Source: Thuidium tamariscinum
Taxonomy: Eukaryota; Streptophyta; Bryopsida; Hypnales; Thuidiaceae
DNA: 64,000 bases
NCBI GenBank assembly: GCA_947034885.2
Contig: OX344749.2
Span: 64,501-128,500, forward strand
Direction of reading: 5' to 3'
The notes below the pieces were generated by a model. That model was given only the letters and a program-made list of their open reading frames with translations. It did no database searches and was not told where the DNA came from. A program made the translations under genes and the position numbers. Positions 24,001 to 62,123 of the stretch are shown in pieces. The stretch's first letter is position 1. Each line of letters starts with the position of its first letter.

Positions 24001-26647
24001 TGTGGTTCCTGCTGGACACTCTCAACTATATTGCATATTAGAAATGGAAGTTTGCTAATAGTTGGCGTCAAGTATTTCTTCAACACCTTTACTTGGTTGT
24101 ATCTATACGAAAGTGCAATAGTTCCGCAATCCTACTGTGACTTGTTAATTGTGACGGGTCGAGGTTCTACACAATCAACGGCCAGAGATCGTTGTTGAAC
24201 ATGAACTGTATTAGAACCATGGGAATTGTTGAAATCTCTTCATCCGAGGTGGGGAGGAGTAAGGGGAAACTCTGGCCAAAAAAATCTCGTGTGTCAAAAA
24301 TTCTTGTCCAAAGTAGACTAAGCAAAGCTAAATTCAGTTGCTTTGTGTGTTACCCAGTGTGCATCCCAGGAAGATGACTGAGAGCAACACATTTAACTGG
24401 CCTCTGCTCTTATCCAAATCACGCCCTCTGTTTTCAAGATAACGTGATTCAGTCGTAGAAGATGTCTGTCCAGATGCTAATCATGTCATTTTTCCTATAA
24501 GAAAGTAAAATTTTGCGTGGTTTCAATTCACCAACGATTGAACAGAGTACACGGTCATTGTCATTAGGGGTTGTCACGGCACCTTGACTTGCACGGGTTA
24601 GCCCTAAGAAAGTCCAGATGGCACGTTTTCATTTGTTTTTCGTGTCACGCGTGGGATTCATTCCCTCGGAAATTCACTGTAGCTCTGTTCACCTCCGCAG
24701 GTGCTTAATTGTTCCCAGGGATTCAAAATCCTTGGGAAATTTTGATCTTCCGCTTTGTTGTTTTTCCGGTGCACTATTTTTGCCCTTTCACAAATTTCAT
24801 GTCATTTTGTTGCTCGGTGTGTACATTTTGTCGTCGGCGCCGTCGTCCATGGTGCCTGGAGACCTTGCGGTGGTACCTTGCTTGGAGAGCTCATTCGTTC
24901 TCAAGGTATTTCTTTGTCGTATTTAAATTAGGTTAACTTGTGTCACGCGAGTCTTTATTCTTTTTCTTGAACATTGATTTGTAAAAAAGCTTAATAGAAG
25001 ATTTTGTAGGCTTGTGGGAAGGATCAAACCCTATGTTGATCCACGAACAAGCTTCAGCGCTTCATTGCTGCACTTGAATCCATCTCGTCAAATCCTTCCA
25101 CAGTTATTATACTTCGATTCCATGCCGAGTTTTTTTCACCGCTTCTTCTTTCTTTCGCCTCTGTGAGAGGGTTTGTGCCGTGAGCTTCTATAAAGTGGCA
25201 GCTTCTTTGCTTTTGCTAATGTTCTGAGTAGGGTTTAGGGTTTGTTCTTCTAGCTCATGTTTGAAGTTCTCCGGTGAGGACATTAGTTTTTCGAATTTTT
25301 TGGGGGTTCTTTAGGTACTTTGTTCTGAAAATTATTTGCTGCTATGAAATTTTGATGAAATATGAGCTACAATCATTAGGGTTCACAATCCTTTGGATCA
25401 TCAGACCTTTCAATTTATAGAAATTCATACTGAACTTTTACATTTATAATTCAGCACTTCCACTCATAATTCAACACTTCTACTAATAGACGATTTTGTA
25501 GGCTTGTGGGAAGGATCAGAGACTGAAATACAAAACTGTAGACGGTGTTTGTGGTCGGCTTTATTGACATTGTCAGCTCCAGGATTAGCCATTCGGCATT
25601 GGGGTTTACGGTATGTGCTCTTGTATTGCTACAACAATCTGCCCTCCACTCTCAACTTGCTTGGATTTGGCCGAAGGTGTTGTAGACCAGGGTTTTGTCT
25701 TGTAACTCCTAGGGAAGTGGTATTGGAGACCAGAATATTGAGGAGTTACGTAATCTCTAAAGCTAATGTGGGTAGGGAGGGGTCCATGTTGCTATAGAGG
25801 GCCAGACACCATTCCGTTTAGAGTGTAGCAAGATTCCTCAAATTGTGACTTCCACTCTCCTGATTATGATTACGAGCACCCTATACAGATCCTTGGACAA
25901 GCTTCAGCGCTTCTAGGCTGCACTTGAATCCCTGTCGTCGAATCCTTCCATAAGTATGGTACTTTGATTCCATGCCCTTCTTTGTTGATGTTACCGCTTC
26001 TTCTTTCTCTTGCCTCTATGAGAGGGGTTGTGCCGTGAGCTTGTATGAAGTGCCAACTTCTCTACTTTTGCTGATGCTCTGAGTAGGGTTTAGAGTGTGT
26101 TCGAGTTGGCTCAGATTTGAAGTTCTTAGATGAGGACATTAGGATTTTGGGTATTTTTGGGGTTCTTTTGGTACTTCATTCTGAAAATTACTTGCTGTTG
26201 TGAAAGTGTGATGTATTTAATGAAACATGAGCTATAGTCATTACCGTACACAATACTTTGGATCATAATACCTTTTAATCTTAGTTTATATGTACTGGAC
26301 TTTCAGATTTAAAATTCAGCTTTTCTACTCAAAATTCAGGGTTTTCGGTTGAAAATATGAAGCTACATTGTCTTTAAATTTTTAACATACTCAACTCTGG
26401 GAACAAAAAGTTGCACCAGAACAATCCTCCTCGGAATTTGTTGTTTAAGTATAGGGTTCAGATTTCATTAAATTTCTTTCAACCTATTCAGAGTATGTTG
26501 GGCTTCAGATTCATTTCATTTAGGTGATGGGGATACATTGCAGATACTTTGGGTATACTGATGAATTCTTCTTTTTGCATACACTCTAGAAATGGAGTCA
26601 TTTTCTTCACTTCTAGGGGTTGGGGTCAATTCCTTGTAGTCTTCAAG
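21022..26647. other. Unassigned region, no recognised gene
   Basis: 21.0-22.1 kb is GC-richer and could be the 5' leader of the hAT gene. An open frame of 177 codons on the plus strand there is Lys/Thr-rich and resembles no family. 22.1-24.5 kb has moderate composition and several short frames, none recognisable. 24.99-26.35 kb holds a diverged duplication described separately. Confidence 0.4.
24985..26350. repeat. Diverged direct duplication, ~850-bp period
   Basis: The stretch from about 25.04 to 25.37 kb (ACAAGCTTCAGCGCTTC ... GAGTAGGGTTTAG ... GAGGACATTAG) recurs at about 25.89-26.23 kb in the same order and strand with scattered changes. A further ~27-bp block, ATTTTGTAGGCTTGTGGGAAGGATCA, occurs at about 25.00 and 25.49 kb, placing the duplication junction. 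The second copy lies just upstream of the Myb/SANT-like gene and may be part of its promoter or of the element that carries it. Confidence 0.7.
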
Positions 26648-33941: not shown

Positions 33942-34671
33942 GTTCGACTACTGGGCAGTATGGAGTTTAATAGGATTTTCAAATTTGTATAGTAGTGCCA
34001 CCTAAAATTTTTTTTAAGTTGGACATGGTTTAGTAGGTACCAGTGCAATTTGCAACATGATGTTCAATAGATTTAGGCTTACGTTCTATAAAAAATGAGT
34101 TCAATGTTTCCTGAATGAAATGGAAGTGTGGTAGTTAGACATGTCCCCAATATTGAAATGTGGTGTTATATAACTGAATGCAAATGGAATACTTTTATAA
34201 ACAGGTCCCTACTTGTACATGTTTGAGTTTCTAGATTGTCAGTAATGGTGTGCAGCTTATGACCATGATTTCAGGAATACAAAAGGATTTGTACATGGCC
34301 AATTTGCAAAGGAATCCTTATTTGTGAGCACCGAAAAGTTGTTGTGGGCAACAAGCTCTTCAACATTTTTTTGTTAGAAATCAACATTTTTGTGTCAAAA
34401 TGAACAACAATATTAAACACTAATCAGTTATTGAACAACACAAAAGTGTTGATGACAACAACCAAATCAACACTTTTTAGTTGAACAATGTCCAGGTCAA
34501 CACATCCTAATTAACAAAAAAATTCAACACTTTTTTGTTGGAATTTTGTTAATTTGGACACATATTTTCTAGTAGTGGATGTGTGCAGGTTTTAGTATAA
34601 CGTGATTTGAGGTCATGTTGGACTGATGTGTTCTTTTTCATAAATCAAATGTAATTGTAGGAGTTTCCTTG

Positions 34672-37600
34672 TGTGGCAACCTAGAATTCACCTAAGCGGG
34701 TTCTTAAGCAAAATACGGGAAGAGGGATCTATTCAATCCCCATTTTTTTGTTGTTTTCTTAGTTGTTACGCACAATTAGGACCAAGACCGTAAACCGGGA
34801 AACCCCAGACCGTAAACCAGAAACTACGTTAAGGGACAGCATATGAAATCCCGGATTCCGCCCACCTAGCGACCGAGACCGGATAGGCAATGAGTGGCTA
34901 CCGAGTCTAGAGATCGTCGGGATCTCTCCCACGTGACCAGACTGGTTTAAACCTAACGGTCAGTAATTAATGCCGGGGGGGGGAAAGTATAAGACCAGGG
35001 AAGCAGGGCCAGGTCCTGCCACTTTCTTGCACGCAGTTCGAGAAAGGGTTTCCGGCCGGAGATAGAGTATTCGGTCTACAGACAGAGAGAGGGGATAGAT
35101 AATCTGTCAATCCGGTCTGGTACATAGTTGAGCGATTAGCACTAGGCTAGCTGGTAGGTTCTTGAGCGCGGGAGGTTTAGTTAAGTTGGACCGCGCCTAG
35201 ATTGTGTAGGTGTCAAGTGAGAGATGGCAGAAGAGGTGCAGGAAGGAAGGATTCTAGCCTTCCGGAATGTGAATCCGGTCGTGCCAACTGACGCACAAGA
35301 CAAGCGGGAGCTGGAGGAAGACCTCAGGCAGATGGGCTGTGAGGGGTTCATGGCTCATCCCTGGAACCTGAAGGATGAGGCGATGGTGGAGGAGCTACTG
35401 GCCGGCCAGACCAACGAGTGGAAAGGGACGGTCCGGGCGCTGCCAAAGGAGTGGAGTGCGGCGATGTGGCGCAAGGTGTACGCCTTCGAGCAAGGAGGAG
35501 ATGCGACGGGCACCCGGACGGACAAATTCCACCAAGGGAAGTTCCGCAGGCCCACCAACCCGAAGGACGGCTTTACGGTAGCAGAGTGTGTGTCTGCTAG
35601 ACACAAGAGGCTACTGCGGTTCATGATGGCGATCTTGAACTCGGATAGACCTAGTAGGATTACGGTCACCGTAGCCAACACCGTCTTTGGTGCACTGTCG
35701 GGAGACAGGAAGATAGATTGGGGGTTAGTTATGAGGGACCGGATGGACCGAATGGTGAAAGGAATTGGGAAATCTAAACCCTCTCCCATTTCACCATTCC
35801 TGTTTCATCTGTATCATTCGTTAGACCTCTTGAGAGAGAAGGAGATGGAAGCTTACGAGGTAGGGGCTGCATTGATAGAGTATGAGATTGTAGACCCGGA
35901 AGCTGAAAATGACCAAGATGAGGAGGACTCCGAGGATGAGAGTCAGGAGGGGCATCAAGGAGGCACACAGGAGGTAGATGAGGTTCTAGAAGTAGGAAGG
36001 GAGGATCCACCTCTAGAAACCCCTGTAGTAGCCGGGGAAGCCCAGAGGTCAGATCCGGTCTGGGAACAGGATCCCTTGCTAAGGATCCTGCGAGACCTGG
36101 AGGATTTCAGAAAGCACCACCTGGAGGAGAGAGGGTTATTGCGGGGCATAAGCCAAGCCCTAGGCTCTATTCCCCCCTCCAAGATCATGGAGGTGTTGGG
36201 AGAATTGATTCAGGAGGCTCATGATAGTCGGGACAGAGAGGAGGTACTCCGGCTGACGAATCAGGTCTCAGCCCTGAGGAGGGAGCTCCATCACACTCAG
36301 GAGGAGCTGGATGAAGAGAGACGCCTCACCACGCAGGCCCGGAACACACTCGGAGAAATCCGAGAGTTCATCACGCATCCGGGTGAAGTCGTCAACAAAG
36401 CCATGCTTTTCGACAGGAAGGTCTTGGAAGCAGGCAAGATGGTGGGTCCCCAGATGCTTACAGCTCTGGTGGCCTACAACAAGAAAATGGAGGCAGCGCT
36501 GGAGAAGTGGCGGTCAGTAGTCACGGAGGTCCAAGCTAGTTCTGCTCCGGTCTCAGGACCGGAAGAGCCAAAGATGGAGGAGGAGCAGTCGAAGGATCAG
36601 CCACCACCAGAAGCTGTCGAGGTAGAAGCCGGCACATCCGAACCAACGAAGGAAGAGGAAACCAAGACCGACGCAGTGGCGGAGGAACCTGTCCCACCGA
36701 CCCGGATTAAAGAGCCCAGGGTTTCTCAACCTGAGAAGACCAAGGAGCCGGAACCCGAGCCGATTGTGTTGAGGGAGATAATCCGAGGAACGACACCACC
36801 AAGGGAGAAGACCAAGTTCATCACCTTGCTGGACGATTCTCCAAGCAAGTCGCCACCCACGGTCTTCACACAACCAAAGACCGGAGGGGAAGCGAAGGCA
36901 ACGGTGCAGGTCCGCTCCATACTGAAGACCGGATCTGGATCCGGGTCACCAAGCAAGGGACCAGCCCGGACTGCCGAGAAAGTGGGAGAGCAGACCCCGC
37001 AAAGCAAGATAGTGCACCACCCGCCCATCACCGGATTCAAGAAGAAAACCGCGGAGACATCCAAGGTGAAGCGGAAGGCCCGGGATGAAGAGGAAGAGGA
37101 GTCAGATGAAGAAGATGAGGACTCGGAGGAAGAGACCGACTCCGGTGATGAGTCGGAACAGTACTCAGATGCGGACCAGGCATTGGCGGAGACCACGAAG
37201 ACCAGGGCCAAGGCGCGGGGTAAGACCAAGCCAAAGCCGCGACCCGTCAAGATGTACCGGTCTCCGAAGAAGCAGCCAGCCCGGAAGGGTGCATCGCCTG
37301 TCAAGAGGGCGAGGAAATAGGGGGCATTAATTACAGGTAGATAGGAAGGCGGCTAAACCAGGATATATTTAGGTTAGGAACTTTTGAACTTAGATCGAAT
37401 CCAGATATGTAGGATCTGTGATCCTATTTTGTTGGTATTTTTGTAGTTTTGTGGAAGTCAACCCGCCCAAGTTGTAGAGGAATGTTATGTGGCATTCTTG
37501 GCGGCTGGTGTTGATTCCATTTGTACTTTTAGGTTTTCTTGTAGTTTAGTATTTAAACCCGGTTCGTAATTGAATCCGGGGGCGCATTATGTTATCTTAC

Positions 37601-38587
37601 TTTCACAAGTTTTTGTGTTGCAAATACAAGTCAGAACCTTTCTGATTCACTCTGAAGTGGACTGTGTGCATGGGACCTTGTCAAAGTCTTATGGTGATGG
37701 TTAGGATTGCAGCCTTGTGTGGATAAGTGTGTGCCCGGATGTTCAGTTTATCCGGTCTCTGGACTTAAAGTGAATTCGGTTTTGATAGGGAATTTGTGCA
37801 GGATCCCACGGTGTTTTTTGGAACAGGTCTAGGGAGTATTCGATAGAGATAGACACTTGTAGAGTCTGGGTTTGAGATCGGGAGCGTCCGGCCAAATGCC
37901 AACGGAATGGTGATCCGGTCTCTGTAGAAGAAAGAAGGACTAAGTGAGGAAATTCAGCTCTCTTGCATAAGCTACCGCCTTTATTCTACCAGGGATTAGA
38001 CTAACTGGGTACTCCGTCGTTGTAGTCTTTGTTAGGATTAGGCAGGAGTGCTTGCGTGACCTGTTGGGTCGGATTAGTCCTGGTCCAGTTGTGAGGTATT
38101 CCGGTCTGTTTGTAGTAGTAGTTTCTTTTTATTTATAAGTGGAACTTCTGACACTTTAAAACTTGAAGGGTAGGAGTAAGCTTCCTTCCTAAACGCCCAA
38201 ACAAGCAGATCCCTCTTGTTATCGAGGTAAAACTTACACTTGGTTACTATACTAGGGACTGGACCAGCTACTAGTATCCGGTCTTTAGTCCCATATCTAG
38301 TGAGCGTAAGCATCAAGGTGGTAAACATACTGGTATAAATAGATAGACTTAGTTTTGAAGGATAAAGGATTGATCTGGTAATCAGGTCCAAGGAAATCTT
38401 AGGAACTTTGGAGACCCAGACCGGATCAGTCTTTTGCTTGGGTTTTGTTGTAATAACCACTAACGTATTCCGGTCTTTCGTCAGCTTTCGACCAAATCCT
38501 TTGGGAACGATACACGAGTCACTTTAAGGCTAATTTAGTACATTCTAACGCCTTAGAGAAGGAATTGTGCTTTCCTGTGCTACGACA
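34672..38587 (+). mobile_element. Giant LTR-like unit A: TG...CA, 5-bp duplication, one intact coding region
   Basis: The unit starts TGTGGCAACC, ends TGCTACGACA and is bordered by the same 5 bp, CCTTG, at 34667-34671 and 38588-38592. Those are the ends and duplication expected of an LTR integrated by a retroelement integrase. Length is 3916 bp. A TATA box (TATAAG, 34988-34993) sits ~316 bp in, and the coding region starts ~230 bp after it. A short hairpin (CCCGGTTCG...GAATCCGGG) lies near 37.56-37.58 kb, downstream of the coding region. No direct repeat joins the two ends, and no primer-binding site, protease, RT or integrase was seen. Either this is a solo LTR with a gene inside it or an LTR-less element of unknown type. 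It looks whole. It sits 94 bp past the CACTA right end. Confidence 0.8.
35224..37320 (+). CDS. Unknown protein encoded inside LTR-like unit A, 698 aa
   Basis: A single uninterrupted frame starting at the first ATG after the TATA box. Residues ~10-225 form a conserved block with GCEGFMAHPW, KVYAFEQGG, RTDKFHQGKF, PTNPKDGF, RITVTVANTVFGA and SPISPFLFHLYH; it recurs in the diverged unit at 41.5-45.3 kb. An acidic linker follows. About 335-400 is a coiled coil (LTNQVSALRRELHHTQEEL), and ~405-450 is another conserved helical block (HPGEVVNKAMLFDRKVLEAG, LTALVAYNKKMEAALEKW). The rest is Pro/Glu/Lys-rich, with a Glu/Asp run (~620-650) and a basic, NLS-like tail ending PVKRARK. No zinc knuckle, DDE motif or polymerase motif is visible. 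A nuclear or chromatin-associated, or Gag-like, role is possible from the shape only. I do not recognise the family. Confidence 0.75.
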   Translation: MAEEVQEGRILAFRNVNPVVPTDAQDKRELEEDLRQMGCEGFMAHPWNLKDEAMVEELLAGQTNEWKGTVRALPKEWSAAMWRKVYAFEQGGDATGTRTDKFHQGKFRRPTNPKDGFTVAECVSARHKRLLRFMMAILNSDRPSRITVTVANTVFGALSGDRKIDWGLVMRDRMDRMVKGIGKSKPSPISPFLFHLYHSLDLLREKEMEAYEVGAALIEYEIVDPEAENDQDEEDSEDESQEGHQGGTQEVDEVLEVGREDPPLETPVVAGEAQRSDPVWEQDPLLRILRDLEDFRKHHLEERGLLRGISQALGSIPPSKIMEVLGELIQEAHDSRDREEVLRLTNQVSALRRELHHTQEELDEERRLTTQARNTLGEIREFITHPGEVVNKAMLFDRKVLEAGKMVGPQMLTALVAYNKKMEAALEKWRSVVTEVQASSAPVSGPEEPKMEEEQSKDQPPPEAVEVEAGTSEPTKEEETKTDAVAEEPVPPTRIKEPRVSQPEKTKEPEPEPIVLREIIRGTTPPREKTKFITLLDDSPSKSPPTVFTQPKTGGEAKATVQVRSILKTGSGSGSPSKGPARTAEKVGEQTPQSKIVHHPPITGFKKKTAETSKVKRKARDEEEEESDEEDEDSEEETDSGDESEQYSDADQALAETTKTRAKARGKTKPKPRPVKMYRSPKKQPARKGASPVKRARK

Positions 38588-39530
38588 CCTTGAGCATCAG
38601 ACAAGTCGTTCATGTATTGTGCATTCGCATGCTATACAGATTATTCTCAACAAACATGGTATAATAATGTAATATTTATGTGCTTGTGACTGGTTATTGA
38701 ACTTCATCCAACTGCACATGGCATATCGTATCAGCCATCAATGATCTTGTTGAGCATGCTTCGACAGAATTAGGCTTCAGAATTTGAACTGCTGGTGGCA
38801 TGCCTAGTAATTAATGGAATTGATTAAATCTTCCAAATTCAGGCTGCAAATATCGTAACTTACAAGGGCAGATTGTGTTGATGTTTTAAATATTATTTAT
38901 GCTTTTATATTGGAGGGTGTGGTTTTGCATACAGGCGACATTCGTTTTTCCTATTGTGGACTGAGATAGAAAGTCTGCGAATTGCTCATTTAAGAGATGA
39001 CATTCATTTTTTAAGAGGTGGAACTTCTTAAAACAGTTTTAAAAAGACTTTTGTGCATAGGTAAATAAGTGAAAGCATCTAATCCAAGTCGTTTCATATT
39101 TTTTGAAGCTTTGTGAAATTACCTATGAAAGTCATGACAAAAAGAAACGTTTTCAACATTTTTATTTTAAAACCATTTCATGTTTTTGGAATGCCTTAGT
39201 TGCCAAGACTTTAATCCCTAAAGCATTAAGAAAATTTGGCAGTTCAAATTTCCAAACAGAAATTTGGATTTTCATACCCCTACAAATATTAATTTCAAAT
39301 CAAAATAAAATATTGTACCTTTTTTATTTGAAAATTAGGAAAATAAAAATCTCTCTGAAAGTTTTATACATTTCCAAACATGAGGATCCTTAATCCTAAA
39401 TTAAACAAATTGAATCCTATTAAATTCAAAAAAATTCATATATTCCAAAAAAAAAATTTAAGTATTGCTATTATCTAAATAACAATGACTACCCTACATC
39501 ACTAAAGAAGGCCAGATGCAATAAGCATCA
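38588..39530. other. AT-rich spacer
   Basis: Contains the target duplication of unit A and AT-rich DNA. A short piece near 38.73-38.79 kb reads NDLVEHASTELGFRI, possibly an exon remnant, without other support. Nothing else recognised. Confidence 0.35.
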
Positions 39531-40137: not shown

Positions 40138-41538
40138 AATTCAAGAAGTGAAGAAATAAAAGTTTGTGTATTTATAAGGATTTATTTTCGTCATTGGAAG
40201 TTTAGATTGCAAAGAAAAAGTAATTGAAATTTGTATATGAATTACAAGAAAGCATTTTAGAATCAATTTTTTGATGTTGCTTCTTTTATGTTTTATAAAG
40301 GTTAGTTAATCTCTGAATGTCAACAGTATTATCTAAACTTTCTATTTAGCAACAATGAGAATAAAGTCTTATTAGGAATAATATTTTGGAATTCATATAT
40401 AAATATAATTTTACAAGTTCAAATGTAGATTTATCTCTATGTTTAGATTCACAAAGGTAATAGAATGATTTATTTTTATTATGCATTTAAAATTTCACAA
40501 GTACAAAAGCGGCATGGTGAATGACATCGTACCACATCTTTAAAAATTAACGATTAGCATGAAATATCCTTGCAAAGAATCTTAAGAATTTTTTTTAAAA
40601 TTTTTTTTCAAAAAAGAATTTTATATTGTAGAAGTAGACATAAAAAGATAATTTCTTAGTCATAGAGCATTTCAACACCTCTTACTATAAGAAGTTTGAC
40701 CATTACAATATCCTTAGATTATACGAGTGAACTTCTAAAAGTTTCTCCAAAGATACCTTCTCTACCTTTCTTGCAATCTCAAGAGTCATGTCTCCTTAAT
40801 ACTATTTTTCAATAATGAAATGGACTTTAGTGGCTATTTGTACCTTGCTTGTAGAGACCTTGCCCTGGGCATTTAAGGATTAACTAAAAATCTTTAGAAA
40901 AGTTAGTTTGAATTTTTTTTGTAAAGACATCAAAGATTTTGTCATTCTAATATTTGATTGCTTTAAACATTTAAGAGGCTGAAAAGCAGAAAAATAGAAG
41001 CTGAAAAATAGAAGCTGAAAAACAGAGGCTGAAAAGCACGTAGGGTTTTTACCCAGGTTTGACATGGGGTTGATTGAACCTCAGGGTTTCTTATGCCCGT
41101 CTGGGTTTCTTATTCCCAAGGGGTGTCACGGCACCTCCAGAATCCCGCAACCGCATTGGCTGGGATTTTCCTTCCATTCCCTAGGAAATCCTGGAACTTG
41201 GAGGTGCCGTGACAACCCCTATTGTAGCAGAGTCAACATCTCAAAAGAGCGGTGGGACAGGGCCTTGACAACTATAGAACAGTACAGGAGTACTAGAGTA
41301 CGAAAAACTCACCTTCACCAAGAAGACGAGCCCCAAAGGCTACGCCTCCGGAAAGCGCATATCTACGACAATTAACCACACTCTCCCGGGCGGCTGTTCT
41401 GAATTGTAGGCACGTGAAGGCAAGGGTTAGGGACACATGTAGTATCGGAGACCTCACCCACCCATCACCAAGAGAATGGCTGGGTACGAGCAATTTTATT
41501 TTTCTTAATGAAATCAAAAGCACTTGCTTGATCAACCT
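40138..41538. other. AT-rich spacer with a foldback element
   Basis: Mostly AT-rich with no gene. From about 40.98 kb there is a short AGGCTGAAAA / GAAGCTGAAAAATA tandem motif, and at 41119-41220 a foldback repeat listed separately. Confidence 0.45.
41119..41220. repeat. ~100-bp foldback repeat, ends AGGGGTGTCACGGCACCTCC
   Basis: The left arm AGGGGTGTCACGGCACCTCC and the right arm GGAGGTGCCGTGACAACCCCT are inverted near-perfect copies around a short loop. The same arm sequence (AGGGGTTGTCACGGCACCTT) occurs alone at about 24567-24586, so it belongs to a dispersed family. It could be a tiny MITE or a recombined pair of element ends. No clear target duplication was made out. Confidence 0.6.
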
Positions 41539-44500
41539 TGTCACAGTCCGAAAATATCATGTAAGTGAAATAGGAAGATAGTTTATAGAATAGTTCAAAT
41601 TTTCGAAATTTTTAGGTTTTAGATATGGGAAAGGAAGACATATAGAGTCTTTTAAATCCCAAGATTCGTCCAACCGGATTGACCAAGGGTAGTTTTCGGG
41701 CCGGATACCCTCAGTGTCCGGAACAGATCTATGCGGTGTTCAGAACGGATCTGTCCGGAAGACAGAGCGGATCCATGGCGGATCGGGTGCAATCCGGACT
41801 CGATCCGAACTAGTTCCGGATGGACGGCACCTATGGGTCTACGCCGCCGACCTACGGAAACTAGCGTAATGGCTCGGGAACGTCGCACTATTCCGATGAG
41901 AACCGAGAACGCAGAGTACCGACTGGTATATAAACCACTCCGCCCCCATTTCATTTTCACTTTTCGATTTGGCAAATCAAGGTACGCTTGTGTGCAAGTT
42001 TTGGAGCGCGTATAGAGAGAGAAAGAGTGGTGAGCAGTAGAGATTGGATTCGGGTTTAGTTCAAGGTTGGTGCCGACCGCACCGACACGTTCCGACTTGG
42101 GTGGAGAGATGGCGAGCTCCTCCAATCCGAAACGGATGGTGGTGATTGCCAAGTCAATTTCGCCGTTGATTCCTTCCGATCCGCAACATCGGAAGGAGCT
42201 AGAGGATGATTTAGTCTTCCTAGGGTGTGAGGGTCTCATCCGGCGTCCTTGGAGCGTAAAAAGTGACGAGATGGTGCAAGAACTCCTTACGGGAGTTCCG
42301 AATCAGTACCAGCTCACAATGAGGGGTAGACCAGGTTCCTGGTCACCGAAAGTCTGGGCGGAAGTTTACGGGTTTGATAAAACCGGATTAGGTATGGCTC
42401 TTCGGACGGACAAATTTGGTGTCTCGAGGTTCCAAAATCCACCCCACCCGAAGGACGGATATTCGGTTCCGGATTGCACAAATGACCGGCATAGACGGAT
42501 GTTGGAATCCCTGATTCCCATCCTCTATCCGGAAAAGCCTACCCGTGTCACTGTGACAGTAGCGAATACCATTTTCGGATGTTTCGAGAAGTAGATAGTC
42601 AACTGGAGCCTAGTCGTCCAGTATGTAGTCAATCGGCTAGCCAAACATGTTGGGCGGGGCAAGACCAGCCCTATCAGCACCTACTTGTTCCATCCGTACC
42701 ATCACAATGACGTATTGAGCGGACCGAAAATTCTCTCCTATGAGACCGGAGTTCAGATCCTGAAGTACGGCCTAACGAGGGAGTTGGACAAGGATCCGAA
42801 GGATTCGGAGGACGAGCGGATGGATGAAGAGCCTTAGCAGCAGCAACCGGCCAGCCGGAACGGAAAGCGGAACGGAAAAAAGCGACGACGCCGGAGAAGA
42901 GGGGAAATCCAGACCCGAATCCACCCGAATCGACTCCGGGTAAGAAGAAGAAGGATCACTTCGACGTCATCATCCGACAGGCCATAATGGCGCATGCAGA
43001 CAACCTAAGTCACCAAGGGATCCTCGAGCAGATCTCCGTCAAGCTAGGCGGAGTAAAGATCGAGGACATTCCGGAAGCCCTGGACCATCTTCCGACTCAA
43101 GAGGTATTACGGAAGAAGGACGAGGAGATCCGAAAGTGGGAGGACGAAGCTCGGATCCAAACGGATTGGATCCGGCAGGCAGAAGATTTGACCCGGGTGG
43201 CTGAAGAGGGACGGAAGAAGGCGGAAGAGGAGCGGAACGGGCTCCAAAGCAGAATGAACTGGCTGGAAAGCGACCTTCGTGTTGCTAACGGCAAGGTGAG
43301 GCTGGTGAGCGAGGCTACCACCCTGATTTACAACCTGCAAGGGTTGGTGGCCCAGCCGGCGAAAACAGTGGTGAGGGCCCAACTGTTTTCCGCTCGGTTG
43401 ATAAAAGAAGGGCACGTCACCGGATCAAAATTCCTCACCATCTTGGTGGATTATCAGGCCAAGATAGAGGGGGTGCTGAAGGAGATGAGGGCCTTGGTTG
43501 GGTCTTTCAATCTGGAAATGGGAGAGGGTCTTCCGAACTTGGTCAATCAGCAGGTTTACTCTGACTTCAGCCCCGGAGCACAAGGACGGATATCGACGGA
43601 TCAGAAACTCCTAGGTGATACGCCTATCATGAAGAATCTCGACGAACTTGGATCGGATCCAAAGACGGCCGGACCGTCAACAACCCCGACGGGTTCGCCC
43701 AAGAAGAAGACGGCGCCTCGACTTGACTTGGAGATTCGGATGAAGGCCCTACCAAATCCGGCCAAGGAGAATCCGAATAAGTTTGCCCACATGAAGGAGC
43801 CGGACAAGGTTCCGCACAACACACCGGTCATCTTGGATGACTCGGACAAGGAAGATGATCCGCCCACCATCATCCGTAGCGAAGCTGGGGAGCCGAGCAA
43901 ATTTCAGGGGGTGGAGCAGTCGGAGAGCTCGGAGGCGGAGTCGAATGATACCTCGACGGAAGATAGTGGAATGCCGCTAGTCCCAATTCAGAAGAGGCAG
44001 ACTCGTTCCGCCACTAAGAAGACTCCACCCGCCAAAGCAGTGACGCGGAGGAGTTCAATTCCGCCCGCGGGTACTACATTGAAGCGGGAACGTAAGTAGG
44101 ACACAGTAGAGTAGTTAGATAGTTTTGAGATTTTGGACGGAAGTTTCCGGAATGGATTTCCTAGATGTGGGCCCCAATTCGAAACTTTAGGAACAACTGG
44201 CCGAACCTTTCCGGATAATCCAGTTGGGCTCCGATTGGTTGTTTCGGATTTTCTTTTGCCTTGTTGGCATTTCGTTTCTGTTTTTAGGCTTTGACTTCTG
44301 TTTTGATTTGGGCTTTTAAGGGGCAGGTAAGTTAGTTGGCCTGTCATTCCCTCCTAGCGCATATTCATGTATTTTCATTCCTTTTTTTAATCTGAGCCGG
44401 CAGGTGAACATTCCAGCTCTGACTTTTGTGTTTAGGATTCTCTTGGTGTGTTTATTTGGGGTGTTGAGACCTAAGACGAACGGTGAGGAGGAATCCGGAT

Positions 44501-45335
44501 TCTTAGGCAACTGAGATCTGAACTGAGTGATCAACTTCCGAGAGCTGGGGTCTTGACTTGTGAGTTTGAGCGCAGAGCCTTTAATTTGCTGGAACGGTGA
44601 TCCGGTGTGAATCCAAGAGTGACACGGAGGAGGTTCCGGAACCACAAGGGTGGATCCGTGCGGAGTTAAGCAGCCGCCATAGGAAAGTTTCTGTCCACCG
44701 GAAGGTCTGCCAACCATTGAGTCGATCCGTGGAACTAGGGAAGTACGTCTTTTCAGGTTTGGGGGTCTTTTGATTTGTCATTGTAGTAAGAGCAAGTGAA
44801 GTAGTACTGAGTGACCTGCTAACCGGATTGGCTCAAATCCATCCGAAAAGTTGTGAGGATCCAGATCCGCCTCTACTACAAAATCGGATATATTTTGGTG
44901 TCTTTGTGTGTTTTGTATATTTTGTTTGAGTGAAGAGAGTGTGAGGTTTATGAGTGGTAAGTCCCTACCTTCTAAAGATCAAGAGAGGATCCCCTGAGGG
45001 TAAAACAGGGGTATCCAAAACCGATAATCGAAGTAACGGAACCGGAATCCGAATTGAGACGGATCCGGGTGGAAGTGAAATCCGGATCCGGGAAGGGAAT
45101 CCGGCAATAGTTGGGATATGGATCCGGAGAGAGGTGACGGATCCGGGAAAGGGATCCGGAAACTAAGTGGTATTCCGGATTGAGAGTAGTAACTTGGATG
45201 TTTTTGAGCTGGGAAACCTAGAAACCGGAAAACACAACTATTAATAACGTCTGGAATCTTCTGGGACAATATTTGTGTCATATTATCACGTTTGGGTGTG
45301 ATAAAGGTGCTTTCTGCTAGACTGCGCGTATGACA
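41539..45335 (+). mobile_element. Giant LTR-like unit D (second family): TG...CA, 5-bp duplication, broken coding region
   Basis: Starts TGTCACAGTCCG, ends GCGCGTATGACA, and is flanked by the duplication AACCT at 41534-41538 and 45336-45340. Length is 3797 bp. A TATA box, TATATAAA, lies at 41927-41934, ~390 bp in. One coding region (about 42.1-44.1 kb) has the same domain order as unit A: the N-terminal block with GCEGLIRRPW, RTDKF, PKDGYS and RVTVTVANTIFG; a coiled coil; a helical block; a basic Lys/Arg tail. Its sequence is clearly diverged from A and its non-coding parts are unlike A. It is broken, with about three breaks. The 3' part is packed with GATCCGG/ATCCGG words. No direct terminal repeats or polymerase genes are seen. 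Confidence 0.78.
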
Positions 45336-45559
45336 AACCTCAAGCCCCTTTTGATCAACCCTCAGAAGTTTTGTAGCTACATGTCTAACGGCACTTTACT
45401 ACAGCTCTAAACCCTACTCTTTTCACTACACAGGGTTTAAAATATTCAAAAATGCGAGTCCAACTATTCAACGGATGCTGTGGGTGAGGTCTCCGATACT
45501 ACATTCTATCCTGAGGTTACAATTCAATTCTAATGACACCAACTCAACTCTTAAACTAA
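45336..45559. other. Short spacer
   Basis: Contains the right target duplication of unit D and ends at the target site of the Harbinger element. No gene. Confidence 0.5.
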
Positions 45560-53996: not shown

Positions 53997-55592
53997 ATTG
54001 GTATTGATGAAGCTCCCTCTTCAAGGCTGAGACCTGGTTAGTTATCCGGGTTACTTCCTCCTTGTCCCGATTCCCATGTGCCTCCCGGATCAACTCTTCC
54101 AATATCTCCATGACCTTGGAGGGTGGAACACTGCCCAGGGCTCTGCACACTCCCTGCAACACCTTTCTCTCCTCCAAGTGGTGCCTCCTGAAGTCATTGA
54201 GGTCCTGAATGATCTTCATCAAGGGATCCTGTCCCCAGACCGGATCTGATCCTTGGGTCTCTCCTGTAACCACGGGGATTTCCAGCGGTCGACTATCTCC
54301 GCCTACCTCTGGTTCTTCCTTCCTTTCCTGAGGTTCCCTTTGTCCTTCGAGACATCATCATCCTGGTTCTTATTGGCCTTAGGATCCTCTCTCTCATATT
54401 CTATCATGGCTGCTCCTACCTCGTAAGCCTCTTTCTCTCTTTCTCCCTTAAGAGATCTAGTGAGTGGTACAAGTGAAACAAAAATGGTGAAATGGAGGAG
54501 GGTTTTGACTTCCCAATCCCATTCACCATTTTGACCATCTGGTCCCGCATGACTAACCCCCAATCTATCTTCCGGTCTCCCGATAGCGCACCAAAAATGG
54601 TGTTGGCTACGGTAACCGTGATCCTACTTGGCCTATCCAGGTTCAGGATTGCCATCATGAATTGCAGTAGTCTCTTGTGTCTAACCGAGATACACTCCGA
54701 CACTTTGAAGCCATCCTTCGGGTTGGTGGGTCTCCGGAACTTACCCAGGTGGAACTTGTCCGTCCGAGTGCCCGTCGCGTCTCCGCCTTGCTCAAACGCA
54801 TACACCTTGTGCCACATCGCTGTGTTCCACTCCCTCGGCAACGCCCGGACCGTCCCCTTCCATTCGTTGGTCTGGCCGTCCAGTAACTCCTCCACCATCT
54901 CCTCGTCCTTCAGATTCCACGGACGAGCCATAAACCCCTCGCAACCCATCTGCCTGAGGTCTTCCTCCAACTCCAGCTTATCTTGTGCATCCGTAGGCAC
55001 GACCGGATTGACATTCCGGAAGGCTAGAATTAGCCCCTCCTATACCTCACTTGCCATTGTTCGCTCTTCGCTTGTGCTAACTAGGTGCGGTCCAACTTGA
55101 CTGAACTCTCCGCGCTCAAGAATCTCTCAACAGGTCCCGTGTTACTCACTCAAGTCTGCGCCAGACCGGATTGATAGACCACCTATCCCTCTTCTCTCTC
55201 TATAGACCGGATACGCTCTCTCTCTCTGCCGGAAGACCCTTTCTCGATTTGTGAGCAAGAAAGTGGCAGGACCTGGCCCTACTCCCTAGTCTTATACTTT
55301 TCACTAAGCATTAATTACTGACCGTTAGGTTTAAACTAGTCTGGTCACGTGGGAGAGTTCCCAACGATCCCTAGGCTTGGTAGCCACTCATTGCCTATCC
55401 GGTCTCGGTTGCTAGGTGGGCTGGATCTGGATTTCTTTTTTCGTCCCTTAACGTAGTTTTCTGTTTCTGGTTTCCGGTCTTGGCCCTAATTGTATGTCAA
55501 ACTAAGAAAACAACAAAAAATGGGGATTGAATAGATCCCTTTTTCCCGTATTTTGTTTACGAACCTAGTTAGGTGGATTCTAGGTTGCCACA
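53997..55592 (-). mobile_element. Truncated LTR-like unit B (family of A), inverted
   Basis: Minus-strand copy of the unit A family. Its TG end (TGTGGCAACC) is at 55592, the TATA box (TATAAG, read on the minus strand) at 55296-55291, and the coding part from about 55.06 kb leftward. Similarity stops at about 53997, within the coiled-coil region, so roughly the last 60% of the unit is missing. The coding part is broken, with a few breaks. No target duplication can be checked because one end is lost. It faces unit C head to head across a 649-bp spacer. Confidence 0.8.
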
Positions 55593-56241: not shown

Positions 56242-59200
56242 TGTGGCAACCTAGAATTCACTCCAGTAGGATCTTAAACAAAATACGGGAAAAAGGGATC
56301 TATTCAATCCCCATTTTTTGTTGTTTTTTTAGTTTGACATACAATTAGGGCCAAGACTGGAAACCGGAAACAGAAAACTACGTTAAGGGACGAAAAAAGA
56401 AATCCGGATCCAGCCCACCTAGCAACCGAGACCGGATAGGCAATGAGTGGCTACCAAGCCTAGGGATCGTTGGGAACTCTCCCACGTGACCAGACTAGTT
56501 TAAACCTAACGGTCAGTAATTAATGCTGAGGTAAAAGTATAAGACCAAGGGGGCAGGGCTAGGTCCTGCCACTTTCTTGCACACAAATCGAGAAAGGGTC
56601 TTCCGGCAGAGAGAGAGAGCGTATCCGGTCTATAGAGAGAGAAGAGGGATAGGTGGTCTATCAATCCGGTCTGGCGCAGACTTGAGTGAGTAACACGGGA
56701 CCTGTTGAGAGATTCTTGAGCACGGAGAGTTCAGTCAAGTTGGACCGCACCTAGTTAGCGCAAGCGAAGAGCGAACAATGGCAAGTGAGGTATAGGAGGG
56801 GCTGATTCTAGCCTTCCGGAATGTCAATCCGGTCGTGCCTACGGATGCACAAGATAAGCTGGAGTTGGAGGAAGACCTCAGGCAGATGGGCTGCGAGGGG
56901 TTTATGGCTTGTCCGTGGAATTTGAAGGACGAGGAGATGGTGGAGGAGTTACTGGACGGCCAGACCAACGAATGGAAGGGGACGGTCCGGGCGTTGCCAA
57001 GGGAGTGGAATGCAGCGATGTGGCACAAGGTGTATGCGTTTGAGCAAGGCAGAGATGCGACGGCCACCCGGATGGACAAGTTCCACCAGGGTAAGTTCCG
57101 GAGACCCACCAACCCGAAGGATGGCTTCACCGTATCGGAATGCATCTCAGTTAGACACAAGAGTCTGTTGCAATTCATGATAGCAATCCTGAACCCGGAT
57201 AGGCCAAGTAGGATTACGGCCACCGTAGCCAACACTATTTTTGGTGTGCTATCAGGAGACCGGAAGATAGATTGGGGGTTAGTCATGCGGGACCAGATGG
57301 TCAAAATGGTGAATGGAATTGGGAAGTCAAAACCCTCTCCCATTTCACCATTCTTGTTTTACTTGTACGACTCCTTAGACCTCTTGAGGGAGAAAGAGAA
57401 AGAGGCTTACGAGGTAGGAGCAGCCATGATAGAGTATGAGATTGCGGACCCGGAGGCTGAGAACGACCAGGATGAGGAGGTCTCAGAGGAAGAAGGTCAG
57501 GATGAGCAACAAGGGGATCCACAAGAGAGAAAGGAAGAGCCAGAGGTAGGAGGAGATAGTCTGCCTCTAGAAACCCCCGTGGTTGCAGGAGAGACCCAAA
57601 GAGCGGATCCGGTCTGGGAACCGGATCCCTTGATGAAAATCATTCAGGACCTGGATGACTTCAGGAGGCACCACTTGGAGGAGAGAAAGGTGTTGTAGGA
57701 AGTGTGCCAAGCCCTAGGCTCTGTTACACCCTCCAAAATCATGGAGGTATTGGGAGAGTTGATTCGGGAGGCACATGAGAGTCGAGACAGGGAAGAAGTA
57801 CTCCGGTTAACGAACCAGGTCTCAGCCCTGAAGAGGGAGCTTCATCACAACCAAGAGGAATTGGACGAGGAGAGACAACTCTCCACTCAGGCCCGGAACA
57901 CTCTCGGAGAAATCCGGGAGTTCATCACCCATCCAGGCGAGATCCTCAACAAGACCATGCTGTTCGACAAAAGGGTGTTGGAGGCAGGCAAGATGATAGG
58001 TCCCCTATTGTTGACGACGCTGGTGGCCTACAACAAGAAGATGGAGGCTGCGCTGGAGAAGTGGTGAGCAGTGGTCACAGAGGTCCAGGCTAGCTCTGTT
58101 CCGGTCCCATGACCGGAAGAGCAGAAGATGGAGGTGGAGCAATCAAAGACACAGCCACCAACTGCAGTCAAAATGGAAGCCGGCGTGTCCGAGTCAGCAA
58201 AAGAAGAAGAGAAGAGGTCTGAAGCCGTGACGGAGGAACCCATTCAACAAACCAGGATTGAAGAACCCCGGGTTTCCGAGCTCGAAAAGACCAAGGGACC
58301 GGAATCGGAGCCAAGTGTGTTGCGGGAGGTCGCCTGGGGGACGTCACCACCAAGGGAGAAGATCAAGTTCATCAACCTGATCGATGAGTCTCCGAGCAAG
58401 TCATCACCCATGGTTATCGTGCAACCGAAGACTAGTGAAGAAGTGAAGACAACGGTGCAGGTCCTCCCGATATTGAAGACCGGATCTAGATCCGAGTCGC
58501 CAAGCAAGGGACCAGTCCGGATTGTCGAGAGAATGGGGGAGCAGACCCCGTAGAGCAAGGTAGCCCATCATCCGCTAATCACCGGATTCAAGAGGAAGGT
58601 CACGGAGACACCCACGGTGAAGCGGAAGGCCCGGGTAGAAGAGGAGGAAGAGGAGTCAGAAGAGGAAGATGAGGACTCAGAGGAGGAGACTGACTCCGGT
58701 GATGAGTCGGACCAGTACTCAGATGCCGACCAAGCACTGGCGGAGACCAAGAAGACTAGGGCCAAGGCGCGGGGTAAGACCAAGCTAAAGCCCAAACCAG
58801 TCAAGATGTACCGGTCTCCGAAGAAGCAGCCTGCCCGGAAAGGTGCCTTGCCTATCAAGCGGCCGAGGAAGTAGGGAAGCATTAACACCAGATAGATAGA
58901 AAGGTGGCTAACCTTTAGCCAAAGCAGGATATATTTAGGGTAGGAGTTTTGAACCTAGACCGGATCCAGATTTGTAGGATCTAAGATCCTATTTTGTTGG
59001 TATTTTTGGAGTTTTGTGGAAGTCAACCCACCCAAGTTGTAGAGGAATGTCACGTGGCATTCTTTGTGGTTGGTTTTGATTCCATTTTCACTTTTAGGTT
59101 TGCTTGTAGTTTAGTATTTAAACCCGGTTTGTAATTGAATCCGGGCGCGCATTATATTATCGTTTTTTCACAAGTTTTTGTGTTGCAAATACAAGTCAGA

Positions 59201-60152
59201 GCCTTTCTGATTCACTCTGAAGTGGACTGTGTGCATGGGACCCTGTCAAAGTCTTATGGTGACGGTTAGGATTGCAACCTTGTGTGGATGAGTGTATGCT
59301 TGGATGTTCAGTTTATCCGGTCTCTGAACTTAAAGTGAATTCGGTTTTGATAGGGAATTTGTGTAAGATCCGACAGTGTTTTCCGGAACAGGTCTAGGGA
59401 GTAATCGACGGAGATAGACACTTGTAGAGTCTGGGTTTGAGATCGGGAAGCACCCGGCCAAACGCCAACTGAATGGTGATCCGTTTTCTTTAGAAGAAAG
59501 AAGGACTAGTGAGGAAATTCAGTTCTCTTACACAAGCTACCGCCCTTGTTCTGCCAGGACTTAGACTAACTGGATAATCTGTCGTTGTAGCATTTGTTAG
59601 AATTAGGCAGGAGTGCTTGCGTGACCTGTTGGGCCGGATCAGTTTTGGTCTAGTTGTGAGGTATTCCGGTCTGGTTTTAGTATTAGTTTATTTTTCCTTA
59701 CAAGTGGAACTTCTAACACTATAAAACTTGAAGGGTAGGAGTAAGCTTCCTTCCTAAACGCCCATACAAGTAGACCCCTCTTGTTGCCGAGGTTAAACCT
59801 ACATCTGGTTACTATTCTAGGGACTAGAACAACTCTTAGTATCCGGTCCCTGGCCCCATATCTAGTAAGAGTAAGTAAGAAAATGATAAATACGATGGTA
59901 TAAGTAAATAAGTAATTCTCTTAAGTCGAAGGATTGATCTAGTATCAAGTCCAAGGTAAATCATAGGAACCCTTGAGACCAAGACCGGATCAGCCTTTTG
60001 CTTGGGGTTTTGGTGTGGTAACTACTAACGTATTCCGGTCTTTCGTCAACTTTCGACCAAATCCTTTGGGAACGATACACGAGTCACTTTAAGGCTAATT
60101 TAGTTCATTCTAACGCCTTAGAGAAGGAATTGTGCTTTCCTGTGCTACGACA
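56242..60152 (+). mobile_element. Giant LTR-like unit C (family of A): TG...CA, 5-bp duplication, broken coding region
   Basis: Starts TGTGGCAACC, ends TGCTACGACA, and is flanked by AAGAT at 56237-56241 and 60153-60157. Length is 3911 bp, almost the same as unit A and alignable along the whole length by eye. A TATA box is at 56538-56543. The coding part runs from about 56.78 to 58.87 kb with the same domains and basic tail as unit A; it is broken, with about four breaks. The 3' non-coding 1.3 kb is also well conserved with A, including the CCCGGTTTG...GAATCCGGG hairpin and repeated CCGGTCT words. No direct terminal repeats. The perfect duplication and high similarity to A argue for fairly young insertions of one family. 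Confidence 0.82.
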
Positions 60153-61849: not shown

Positions 61850-62123
61850 GAGGTGTCAATTTAAACAATACAAATCTGTTTTTATGGTCGATTCAGTGAA
61901 CACTTTGTTGTTCTTTTTGAACATGAATGTATTGAAATGATCAACAAAATGAACATTCTTGTGTTCATGAACAACAAGAAAATGTAAAAATGAACAACTA
62001 AATCAACAAGTTTCAGTTAAGCAATGTCCAAATCAACACGTCCTAATTAACAAAAGAGTAACAAATAAATCAACACTTTTTTGTTTCATTTTTGTTAATT
62101 TGGACAGGGTTTTTCTAGTAGTG
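61850..62123. mobile_element. Right end of a second CACTA element, same family as 28.4-34.6 kb
   Basis: Ends TTTTTCTAGTAGTG at 62123. The preceding ~100 bp repeats the right subterminal region of the first CACTA element (CAATGTCCAAATCAACACG / CCTAATTAACAAAA, TTTTGTTAATTTGGACA). The 3 bp after it are AGA; no left end preceded by AGA was found in the window. The element is either truncated on the left or split by the insertions at 54-60 kb. Confidence 0.7.

What the first reader, a model, noticed from the sequence alone, without database searches (positions are those of the whole stretch)
34672..38587. A 3.9-kb unit with LTR ends and a 5-bp duplication that encodes its own 698-aa protein
Seen: TG...CA ends, perfect CCTTG duplication, a TATA box ~316 bp in, one intact long frame, no terminal direct repeats, no polymerase genes. 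Known: integrase-made insertions give TG...CA ends and 4-6 bp duplications; solo LTRs form by recombination; LTR-encoded proteins are rare (MMTV sag is the classic case). Inferred: this is a protein-coding giant LTR, or a new LTR-less class mobilised by an integrase in trans. Either would be unusual in plants.
Basis: partly seen in the sequence, partly recalled or inferred. Interest (0 to 1): 0.85.

Follow-up and report, generated by a model that had tools for sequence, protein, structure and literature searches.

The report
Giant retrotransposon LTR carrying a gene
The 3.9-kb unit is a lone end repeat left behind by a plant retrotransposon, and unlike almost all such repeats it contains a gene of its own that selection has kept, so many scattered leftovers could still make an element-encoded protein.

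Summary
The 3,916-bp unit has TGTGG...ACGACA ends and a perfect CCTTG duplication; 17 of 20 copies read have exact 5-bp duplications, all different. It is a solo LTR: elsewhere in this 363-Mb plant genome the same LTR flanks a Ty3/gypsy element (primer site, gag, protease, RT, RNase H, integrase; duplication AAAAG). Solos dominate: 407 LTR 3' ends against 17 LTR-primer-site junctions.

The 698-aa frame inside the LTR behaves as a gene. Differences between families A and B fall 95/76/211 on codon positions inside the frame and evenly in the flanks. Variable sites among 19 family A copies fall 88/62/160 in the frame. A second family, also present in the window as a solo LTR (41539-45335), has a homologous 665-aa LTR protein (30% identity, E=6e-72), although the surrounding LTR DNA is hardly alignable. 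The frame begins at the first ATG after a TATA-like box, so it probably lies in R-U5, unlike MMTV sag in U3. Function is unknown; my guess is a nuclear trans-acting accessory protein that solo LTRs can still express. I found no published plant case.

The parts
34667..34671 (.). target-site duplication CCTTG, left
34672..38587 (+). solo LTR, family A, 3,916 bp, TG...CA ends
   Evidence: same sequence flanks gag-pol at G000:C1:47796179-47810092
34987..34993 (+). GTATAAG TATA-like box at LTR position 316, present in all 20 full copies examined; the likely U3/R boundary follows it
   Evidence: no transcript data
35224..37320 (+). 698-aa LTR-encoded protein; its ATG is the first after the TATA-like box; purifying selection
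35251..35928 (+). conserved N-terminal region of the LTR protein (about residues 10-235), 41% identical between families A and C
36073..36543 (+). predicted long-helix / coiled-coil-like stretch (residues 284-440), low-confidence model
36574..37317 (+). charged, probably disordered tail ending in a basic cluster (KGASPVKRARK)
   Evidence: sequence; disorder and nuclear-signal reading are inference
38588..38592 (.). target-site duplication CCTTG, right
41534..41538 (.). target-site duplication AACCT, left, of the family C solo LTR
41539..45335 (+). solo LTR of family C (3,797 bp); its homologous LTR protein is broken in this copy
42109..44099 (+). family C LTR protein frame, interrupted by in-frame TAG and a frame change; its 3' part is the open 370-aa frame 42987-44099
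45336..45340 (.). target-site duplication AACCT, right
54005..55592 (-). truncated inverted 5' part of a family B-like LTR, with the 5' part of the protein frame
56242..60152 (+). solo LTR of family B (83% to A), TSD AAGAT; protein frame 56778-58871 interrupted by stops

Best explanation
The unit is a solo LTR of a Ty3/gypsy retrotransposon (full length about 13.9 kb: two 3.9-kb LTRs around 6.1 kb with gag, protease, RT, RNase H and integrase). Shown: the LTR contains a frame that has evolved as a protein-coding gene under purifying selection in at least two element families. Inferred from the TATA-like box: transcription starts shortly after position 316, so U3 is only about 350 bp and the gene lies in R-U5. 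It would then be the first frame of the genomic RNA from the 5' LTR and, in a solo LTR, a self-contained promoter-gene unit. Inferred: LTR-LTR recombination removes gag-pol and leaves a solo LTR that still carries the gene, so the protein can act in trans for the family. Most likely role, not shown: a nuclear accessory or regulatory protein (activator of the LTR, protection from silencing, or RNA/chromatin binding). It has a conserved N-terminal region, a predicted long helical stretch, a highly charged tail and a basic C-terminus, and shows no resemblance to Gag. The confidence given applies to the anatomy and the selection; I put about 0.5 on a regulatory or anti-silencing role.
For: LTR identity: paired copies around gag-PR-RT-RH-IN with TSD AAAAG; the two LTRs differ at 4 of 3,552 aligned sites; 11 of 17 primer-site junctions pair with a 3' junction 6.08-6.90 kb away, eight of them at exactly 6,103 bp. 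Solo status: 17 of 20 exact TSDs around a single unit; 407 LTR 3' ends against 17 primer-site junctions.

Gene under selection: A against B, differences by codon position 95/76/211 in the frame (chi-square p=6e-19) against 30/25/39 and 52/53/45 in the flanks (p=0.20, 0.68), omega 0.172 with shifted frames at 1.02 and 1.51. C2 (L046) against window C: 108/69/226 in the frame (p=2e-22), flanks flat (p=0.71, 0.91), omega 0.219. Variable sites among 19 family A copies: 88/62/160 in the frame (p=1e-11), 53/52/56 in the 3' flank. A against C protein: 139 of 465 identical, E=6e-72, while outside the frame the LTRs align only weakly. The frame is complete (695-698 aa) in 10 of 20 full copies (19 A, 1 B). 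Of the 111 family C matches scored out of 1,321 candidates, 41 (hand count, window copy included) have no stop over the matched 370 aa. In A, B, C and C2 the frame's ATG is the first ATG after the TATA-like box, 182-241 bp downstream. No similarity to the element's own Gag.
Against: No transcript data, so promoter, R/U5 boundary and expression are inferred. The youngest element read (C1) has the same truncated 577-aa frame in both LTRs and a pol frame interrupted by stops, so a full-length protein in cis was not needed for its last move, or gene conversion copied the defect. Ten of the 20 full copies lack the full frame. The omega values among close family A copies (0.17-0.42) do not argue by themselves: the non-coding flanks read as pseudo-codons gave 0.15-0.64, below 1 in all 18 pairs, probably because the changes are transition-rich and stop codons are dropped. 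The 5' flank of family A also shows a weak third-position excess (32/27/49, p=0.025). The A-C nucleotide comparison is saturated at synonymous sites. Only one family A element was read through its internal region, and no family C full-length element was read: its RT is placed by coordinates only. Function is a guess: no Pfam match and structure models of pLDDT 36-38.
Confidence: 0.9

Rival explanations
1. The 3.9-kb unit is itself a mobile, LTR-less (or single-LTR) element moved in trans by an integrase; solo units arise by direct insertion rather than by recombination.
For: Solo units greatly outnumber full-length elements (407 3' ends against 17 junctions; family C 376 against 7), TSDs are intact and the frame is often intact.
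Against: Full-length elements with the same LTR exist, so recombination is enough. The 19 family A copies in the tree have terminal branches of about 0.3-1.8%, longer than the 0.11% LTR divergence of the C1 element, as expected if full-length copies decay to solos. Longer LTRs go with a higher solo ratio (Du et al. 2012 as cited in PMC7251063, passage). I know of no mechanism by which one LTR is reverse transcribed alone.
Confidence: 0.06
2. The frame is an open stretch without function, for example a dead captured gene riding in the LTR, kept open by chance or recency.
For: Ten of 20 full copies have it broken; the youngest element read carries a truncated version in both LTRs; no recognised domain.
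Against: Strong third-position excess in the frame in three comparisons, absent or weak in the flanks, and protein conservation between A and C where LTR DNA is hardly alignable.
Confidence: 0.05
3. The protein is a structural accessory (a second Gag-like or RNA-binding protein, or packaging factor) rather than a nuclear regulator. This competes only with the role proposed above, not with the anatomy.
For: It would be the first frame on the genomic RNA; coiled-coil-like and basic regions suit assembly or RNA binding.
Against: No similarity to the element's Gag (best BLASTP E=1.2), no zinc knuckle or Gag domain in Pfam; the full-length protein was not needed in cis by the C1 element.
Confidence: 0.3

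Closest known systems
Ty3/gypsy LTR retrotransposons of plants, non-chromovirus side (survey PMC6317226, passages read)
   Same: 5-bp variable TSDs, gag-PR-RT-RH-IN, PBS that looks like a tRNA-Asp match (tRNA identity recalled; the survey lists tRNA-Asp among non-chromovirus primers), no chromodomain found in the one copy examined; LTRs of up to about 5 kb are known there.
   Different: [quoted passage not shown] here the extra frame is inside the LTR and conserved between families. The passages do not say whether any of the surveyed frames lay in an LTR, and I read no supplement, so a case could be hidden in that set.
MMTV and MMTV-like betaretroviruses, sag gene (PMC4667437, passages read)
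   Same: An accessory protein encoded inside the LTR, therefore present twice per element and preserved in solo LTRs.
   Different: sag lies mostly in U3; here the frame starts 182-241 bp downstream of a TATA-like box. The host is a plant and the element Ty3/gypsy; Pfam and PDB sequence searches report no relation.
Plant elements with additional ORFs (Athila, Bagy2, Grande, RIRE2, Retand; review PMC7264820, first of three parts read, plus a phrase search of the main text)
   Same: Extra protein beyond gag-pol, present in most copies of the family.
   Different: Those frames are described in the internal region, mostly between pol and the 3' LTR, sense or antisense; six phrases such as 'in the LTR' do not occur in the review's main text.
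Non-autonomous elements such as TRIM, LARD and TR-GAG (recalled)
   Same: Units without polymerase, mobilised in trans.
   Different: Those have two LTRs around a non-coding or gag-only core; the unit here is a single LTR of an element that has full-length relatives.

Membership tests
Ty3/gypsy LTR retrotransposon (solo LTR of) | TG...CA ends with short TSD around the unit | tested here: met
   17 of 20 copies exact, 2 with one mismatch, 1 none
Ty3/gypsy LTR retrotransposon (solo LTR of) | same sequence as a direct pair around an internal region | tested here: met
   C1:47.80 Mb element, TSD AAAAG; 11 of 17 junctions paired at 6.08-6.90 kb
Ty3/gypsy LTR retrotransposon (solo LTR of) | gag, protease, RT, RNase H, integrase in gypsy order | tested here: met
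   in L029: Retrotrans_gag 1e-10, three zinc-knuckle stretches, Asp protease 2.7e-4 (just below the curated cut-off), RVT_1 4e-12, RT_RNaseH 5e-35, rve 2e-12
Ty3/gypsy LTR retrotransposon (solo LTR of) | primer-binding site matching a host tRNA | tested here: inconclusive
   TGGCGCCGCTGCCGGGGA 8 nt after the LTR, TGGCGCCGTTGCCGGGGA in L044; the match to tRNA-Asp is recalled, and my tRNA pattern was mis-specified and found only 4 primer sites
Ty3/gypsy LTR retrotransposon (solo LTR of) | polypurine tract before the 3' LTR | tested here: inconclusive
   only a short purine-rich GAAAATGGGGTGA precedes the 3' LTR; 21 matches with up to 3 mismatches
Chromovirus | chromodomain after integrase | tested here: inconclusive
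   no Pfam match in the 141-aa C-terminal piece of one copy whose pol has stops
MMTV sag-type LTR gene | accessory frame inside the LTR | tested here: met
MMTV sag-type LTR gene | frame in U3 | tested here: inconclusive
   TATA-like box lies 237 bp (A), 241 bp (B) and 182 bp (C, C2) upstream of the ATG, pointing to R-U5; no transcript data
MMTV sag-type LTR gene | homology to superantigen | tested here: not met
   no Pfam match at E<=10 (that Pfam holds a superantigen model is recalled); best PDB sequence match E=0.12 to unrelated proteins
Plant additional-ORF elements | extra frame in the internal region | tested here: not met
   the frame is in the LTR; the long sense frames of the one internal region read (L029) are gag-pol pieces
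DNA transposon with gypsy-like integrase (Ginger type, recalled) | own DDE integrase and terminal inverted repeats in the unit | tested here: not met
   no integrase domain in the unit's ORF; the ends share only a few bases inverted (read by eye)

The most novel reading that the evidence does not exclude
A clade of plant Ty3/gypsy elements has moved an essential trans-acting gene into the R-U5 part of its LTR. Every element then carries two copies, reverse transcription begins by copying the gene into a strong-stop DNA of about 3.5 kb, and each of the hundreds of solo LTRs stays an independent helper gene. The solo LTR, usually the dead end of a retrotransposon, would be a working gene unit that supports the family in trans and a ready-made host gene for domestication.
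Probability: 0.35. Interest if true: 0.85.

Novelty: new variant of a known kind. Interest (0 to 1): 0.7.

Why it matters
LTRs are ordinarily non-coding (so PMC4667437, passage, which presents MMTV sag as the exception). A conserved protein of about 700 aa encoded in the LTRs of two plant element families shows that the LTR can be a place for a gene. It makes testable whether solo LTRs are inert scars or active genes, how a leader of about 3.5 kb with its own frame is handled in gag translation and first-strand transfer, and whether carrying a trans-acting gene in the LTR changes the balance between element and host. It also means that gene annotation of such genomes may list many LTR genes as host genes of unknown function.

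Tried and rejected
Rejected: (1) unit as internal region with short LTRs: no off-diagonal match inside the unit, and the unit itself is the repeat of a full-length element. (2) Gag origin of the LTR protein: best BLASTP E=1.2. (3) Known domain: Pfam gives none for the A and C proteins at E<=10. DUF5575_C appears at E=0.002-0.003 in one family B fragment only, below its cut-off, and Tropomyosin at 0.025 in the family C piece (a coiled-coil effect); both discarded. A resemblance of the N-terminal region to a 'putative plant transposon protein' family was recalled from memory; Pfam did not report it. (4) Structure: two AlphaFold runs gave pLDDT 35.9 and 37.5, too poor for a fold search, which I did not run. 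(5) tRNA-Asp gene check: pattern mis-specified. (6) PDB by sequence: best E=0.12. (7) The sigma-70 promoter scan does not apply to a plant and was ignored; no tRNA gene in the window. (8) First pattern for family C junctions found 0 because it required TATGACA; with TAYGACA found 9, of which 7 share CTTTTGGCG; the other two (C3:47014262, C5:27799778) were dropped as chance.

Literature (open-access library only): (at least 5 of 6 terms) 0 papers; 0; 2 papers, whose passages use 'LTR-encoded' for ordinary gag-pol proteins; 7 papers, of which PMC4667437 (MMTV sag) bears on the question, PMC3087523 and PMC11117352 do not by their passages, and the other four were seen in the listing only; 6 papers on MMTV, listing only apart from PMC4667437; 19 papers on additional ORFs, of which two were opened (PMC7264820, PMC6317226); (moss and bryophyte terms; 76 listed 12 of 921) brought no LTR-gene paper in their listings. 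'No published plant case' rests on these searches.

Correction: an earlier count gave garbled TSD counts; the right count is 17 of 20.
Full report
What was checked. The genome that holds the window is 363 Mb in 19 contigs and unnamed. A chlorophyll a/b-binding match in the window (Pfam E=1.2e-18) supports a green plant; I could not name the species.

It is a mobile sequence with fixed ends. The 5' end pattern occurs 312 times and the 3' end pattern 407 times with up to three mismatches, against 0 for the reversed control. Twenty copies were read across both ends: 2 in the window and 18 from 20 fetched stretches (L016 and L017 dropped, copies split). Seventeen have an exact 5-bp duplication, two have one mismatch, one has none; the 17 duplications all differ, and the flanks are mostly unrelated. 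Because the 18 were chosen among the best hits to 1 kb of the window copy, they are not a random sample.

It is an LTR. Two same-strand 5' ends on C1 lie 9,999 bp apart. The 6,083 bp between the two LTRs start with 8 nt and a TGGCGCC... primer-binding site and encode Retrotrans_gag with zinc knuckles, an aspartyl protease (just below Pfam's cut-off), RT, RNase H and integrase. The outer flanks carry AAAAG on both sides. The two LTRs differ at 4 of 3,552 aligned sites. Genome-wide, 17 LTR-primer-site junctions were found and 21 junctions before a 3' LTR; 11 of the 17 pair with one of the 21 on the same strand at 6.08-6.90 kb, eight at exactly 6,103 bp. With 407 LTR 3' ends, about 369 are neither 5' nor 3' LTRs of these elements, or 18-22 solo or truncated LTRs per junction; counted from the 312 5' ends the figure is 13-16. 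For family C there are 376 3' ends and 7 recurring junctions, the latter from an exact pattern and so a lower bound. These are pattern counts, so truncated copies are included. In PMC7251063 (passages) the regression for 15 plant species has an intercept of 2.69 solo LTRs per full-length element, and Physcomitrella is named among genomes with high values; the ratio here is high but of a known kind.

The frame in the LTR behaves as a gene. Against family B (83% identical) the differences fall 95/76/211 on codon positions 1/2/3 inside the frame (p=6e-19) and 30/25/39 and 52/53/45 in the 5' and 3' flanks of the same LTR (p=0.20, 0.68). Omega is 0.172, with shifted frames at 1.02 and 1.51 and flanks at 0.50 and 0.86. 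By section it is 0.098 in the N-terminal region, 0.226 in the acidic stretch, 0.141 in the coiled-coil-like stretch and 0.265 in the tail. Among 19 family A copies the variable sites fall 88/62/160 in the frame (p=1e-11), 53/52/56 in the 3' flank (p=0.92) and 32/27/49 in the 5' flank, a weak excess (p=0.025). Omega of the window copy against each of 18 family A copies is 0.17-0.42, with shifted frames at 0.50-1.24 and 0.88-2.06. The non-coding flanks read as pseudo-codons gave 0.15-0.64 in these 18 pairs, so among close copies omega does not separate frame from flanks, and the argument rests on codon positions and on the wider comparisons.

A second family repeats the pattern. The window holds a solo LTR of another family at 41539-45335, TSD AACCT. 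A genome copy (L046, TSD CTATT) has an intact 665-aa frame in the same place. L046 against the window copy gives 108/69/226 in the frame (p=2e-22) and flat flanks; omega against the window copy and 6 of the 9 other fetched family C loci is 0.165-0.226, with shifted frames at 1.07-1.95. The A and C proteins align over 465 residues at 30% identity (E=6e-72); the N-terminal region is 41% identical. The LTR DNA outside the frame shows only short weak similarity. The family C protein search scored 111 of 1,321 first-look candidates; by hand count 41 of the 111 have no stop in the matched 370 aa. At two of the seven family C junctions an RT 74-77% identical to that of family A lies 3.6-3.8 kb downstream (C3:26253541, C8:20001415). 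A further group, here 'D', has the junction GACA, 11 nt, TGGCGCCGYTGCCGGG at 15 places; 11 of these have an RT 75-76% identical to that of family A about 3.5 kb downstream, several with a 1,370-aa open frame. Two D copies lie 9,522 bp apart, which suggests another LTR of over 3 kb, but I could not read it.

Where the gene sits. A TATA-like box precedes the frame in all four LTR types compared (A 316, B 296, C 389, C2 410), and the frame's ATG (positions 553, 537, 571, 592) is the first ATG after it in all four, 182-241 bp on. C2 has a second, earlier TATA-like match at 46. If the box is the promoter, the frame lies in R-U5, at the start of the genomic RNA, with a leader of about 3.5 kb before the primer-binding site. 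That differs from MMTV, where most of sag is in U3 (PMC4667437, passage). There is no transcript evidence here.

Status of copies. The frame is complete (695-698 aa) in 10 of 20 full copies (19 A, 1 B). Stops against the window frame in the 19 others are 9 TAG, 3 TGA and 2 TAA, five of the TAGs opposite CAG, which looks like deamination at CHG sites (inference). The C1 element is the youngest read (0.11% between LTRs), yet both of its LTRs carry the same truncated 577-aa frame and its pol frame is interrupted by stops. It was therefore probably mobilised in trans, unless gene conversion made the two LTRs alike. Nine family B-like RT matches (82-83%) correspond to nine junctions; four of the nine show a 1,408-aa open frame and no stop in the match, so autonomous copies may exist. 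The 19 family A copies in the tree have terminal branches of 0.3-1.8%, longer than the divergence within the C1 element, as the decay of full-length elements to solo LTRs predicts.

Function. No Pfam family matches the A or C protein, it is unrelated to the element's Gag, and structure prediction failed (pLDDT 36-38). The anatomy (conserved N-terminal region, predicted helices at 284-440, charged tail, basic C-terminus) fits a nuclear or RNA/chromatin-binding accessory protein. I put about 0.5 on a regulatory or anti-silencing role, 0.3 on a structural or packaging role, and the rest elsewhere. The 0.9 confidence of the best explanation applies to the anatomy and the selection, not to this role.

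Known or new. Large LTRs, extra frames and solo LTRs are each known in plant Ty3/gypsy elements (PMC6317226 passages; PMC7264820 first part). An extra frame inside the LTR, conserved between families, was not found in the searches; the survey's own set of extra frames was not checked for LTR location. The classic parallel is MMTV sag. I file this as a new variant of a known kind.

Noticed in passing
G000 matches; window 42109-44099: Among broken copies TAG is the commonest in-frame stop (9 of 14 in family A/B copies, 5 of them opposite CAG; also by far the most frequent in the table); this looks like 5-methylcytosine deamination at CHG sites in silenced elements.
   Followed up: partly
G000:C1:47796179-47810092 (L029-L031, L042, L043): A very young full-length element (4 differences in 3,552 between LTRs) has stops in pol and the same truncated LTR protein in both LTRs, suggesting movement in trans.
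   Followed up: partly
G000:C11: 51 of the 111 scored family C protein matches (hand count; ranked by similarity to the window copy) lie on contig C11, whose highest match is at 17.35 Mb; it may be a repeat-rich or sex chromosome.
   Followed up: no
G000:C2:8442468-8453864 and 13 further junctions of the same form: A further group of related elements, several with 1,370-aa open pol frames, with the same LTR-primer-site layout; two copies lie in tandem 9,522 bp apart. Whether its LTR carries the gene is unknown.
   Followed up: partly
L016, G000:C5:9713000-9722900: Three family A LTR pieces abut in alternating orientation.
   Followed up: no
window 47460-48077: Open frame with a chlorophyll a/b-binding domain match (Pfam E=1.2e-18), probably part of a gene with introns.
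   Followed up: no
window 9594-10556 (-): Frame with a weak Ge-1 WD40 match (E=0.36, below cut-off), possibly part of a decapping-enhancer gene.
   Followed up: no
window 34457-34577 and 61993-62123; 25028-25473 and 25878-26338; 12267-12370 and 12370-12470: Other repeat pairs in the window (80%, 78% and 89% identical), probably further small repeat families.
   Followed up: no
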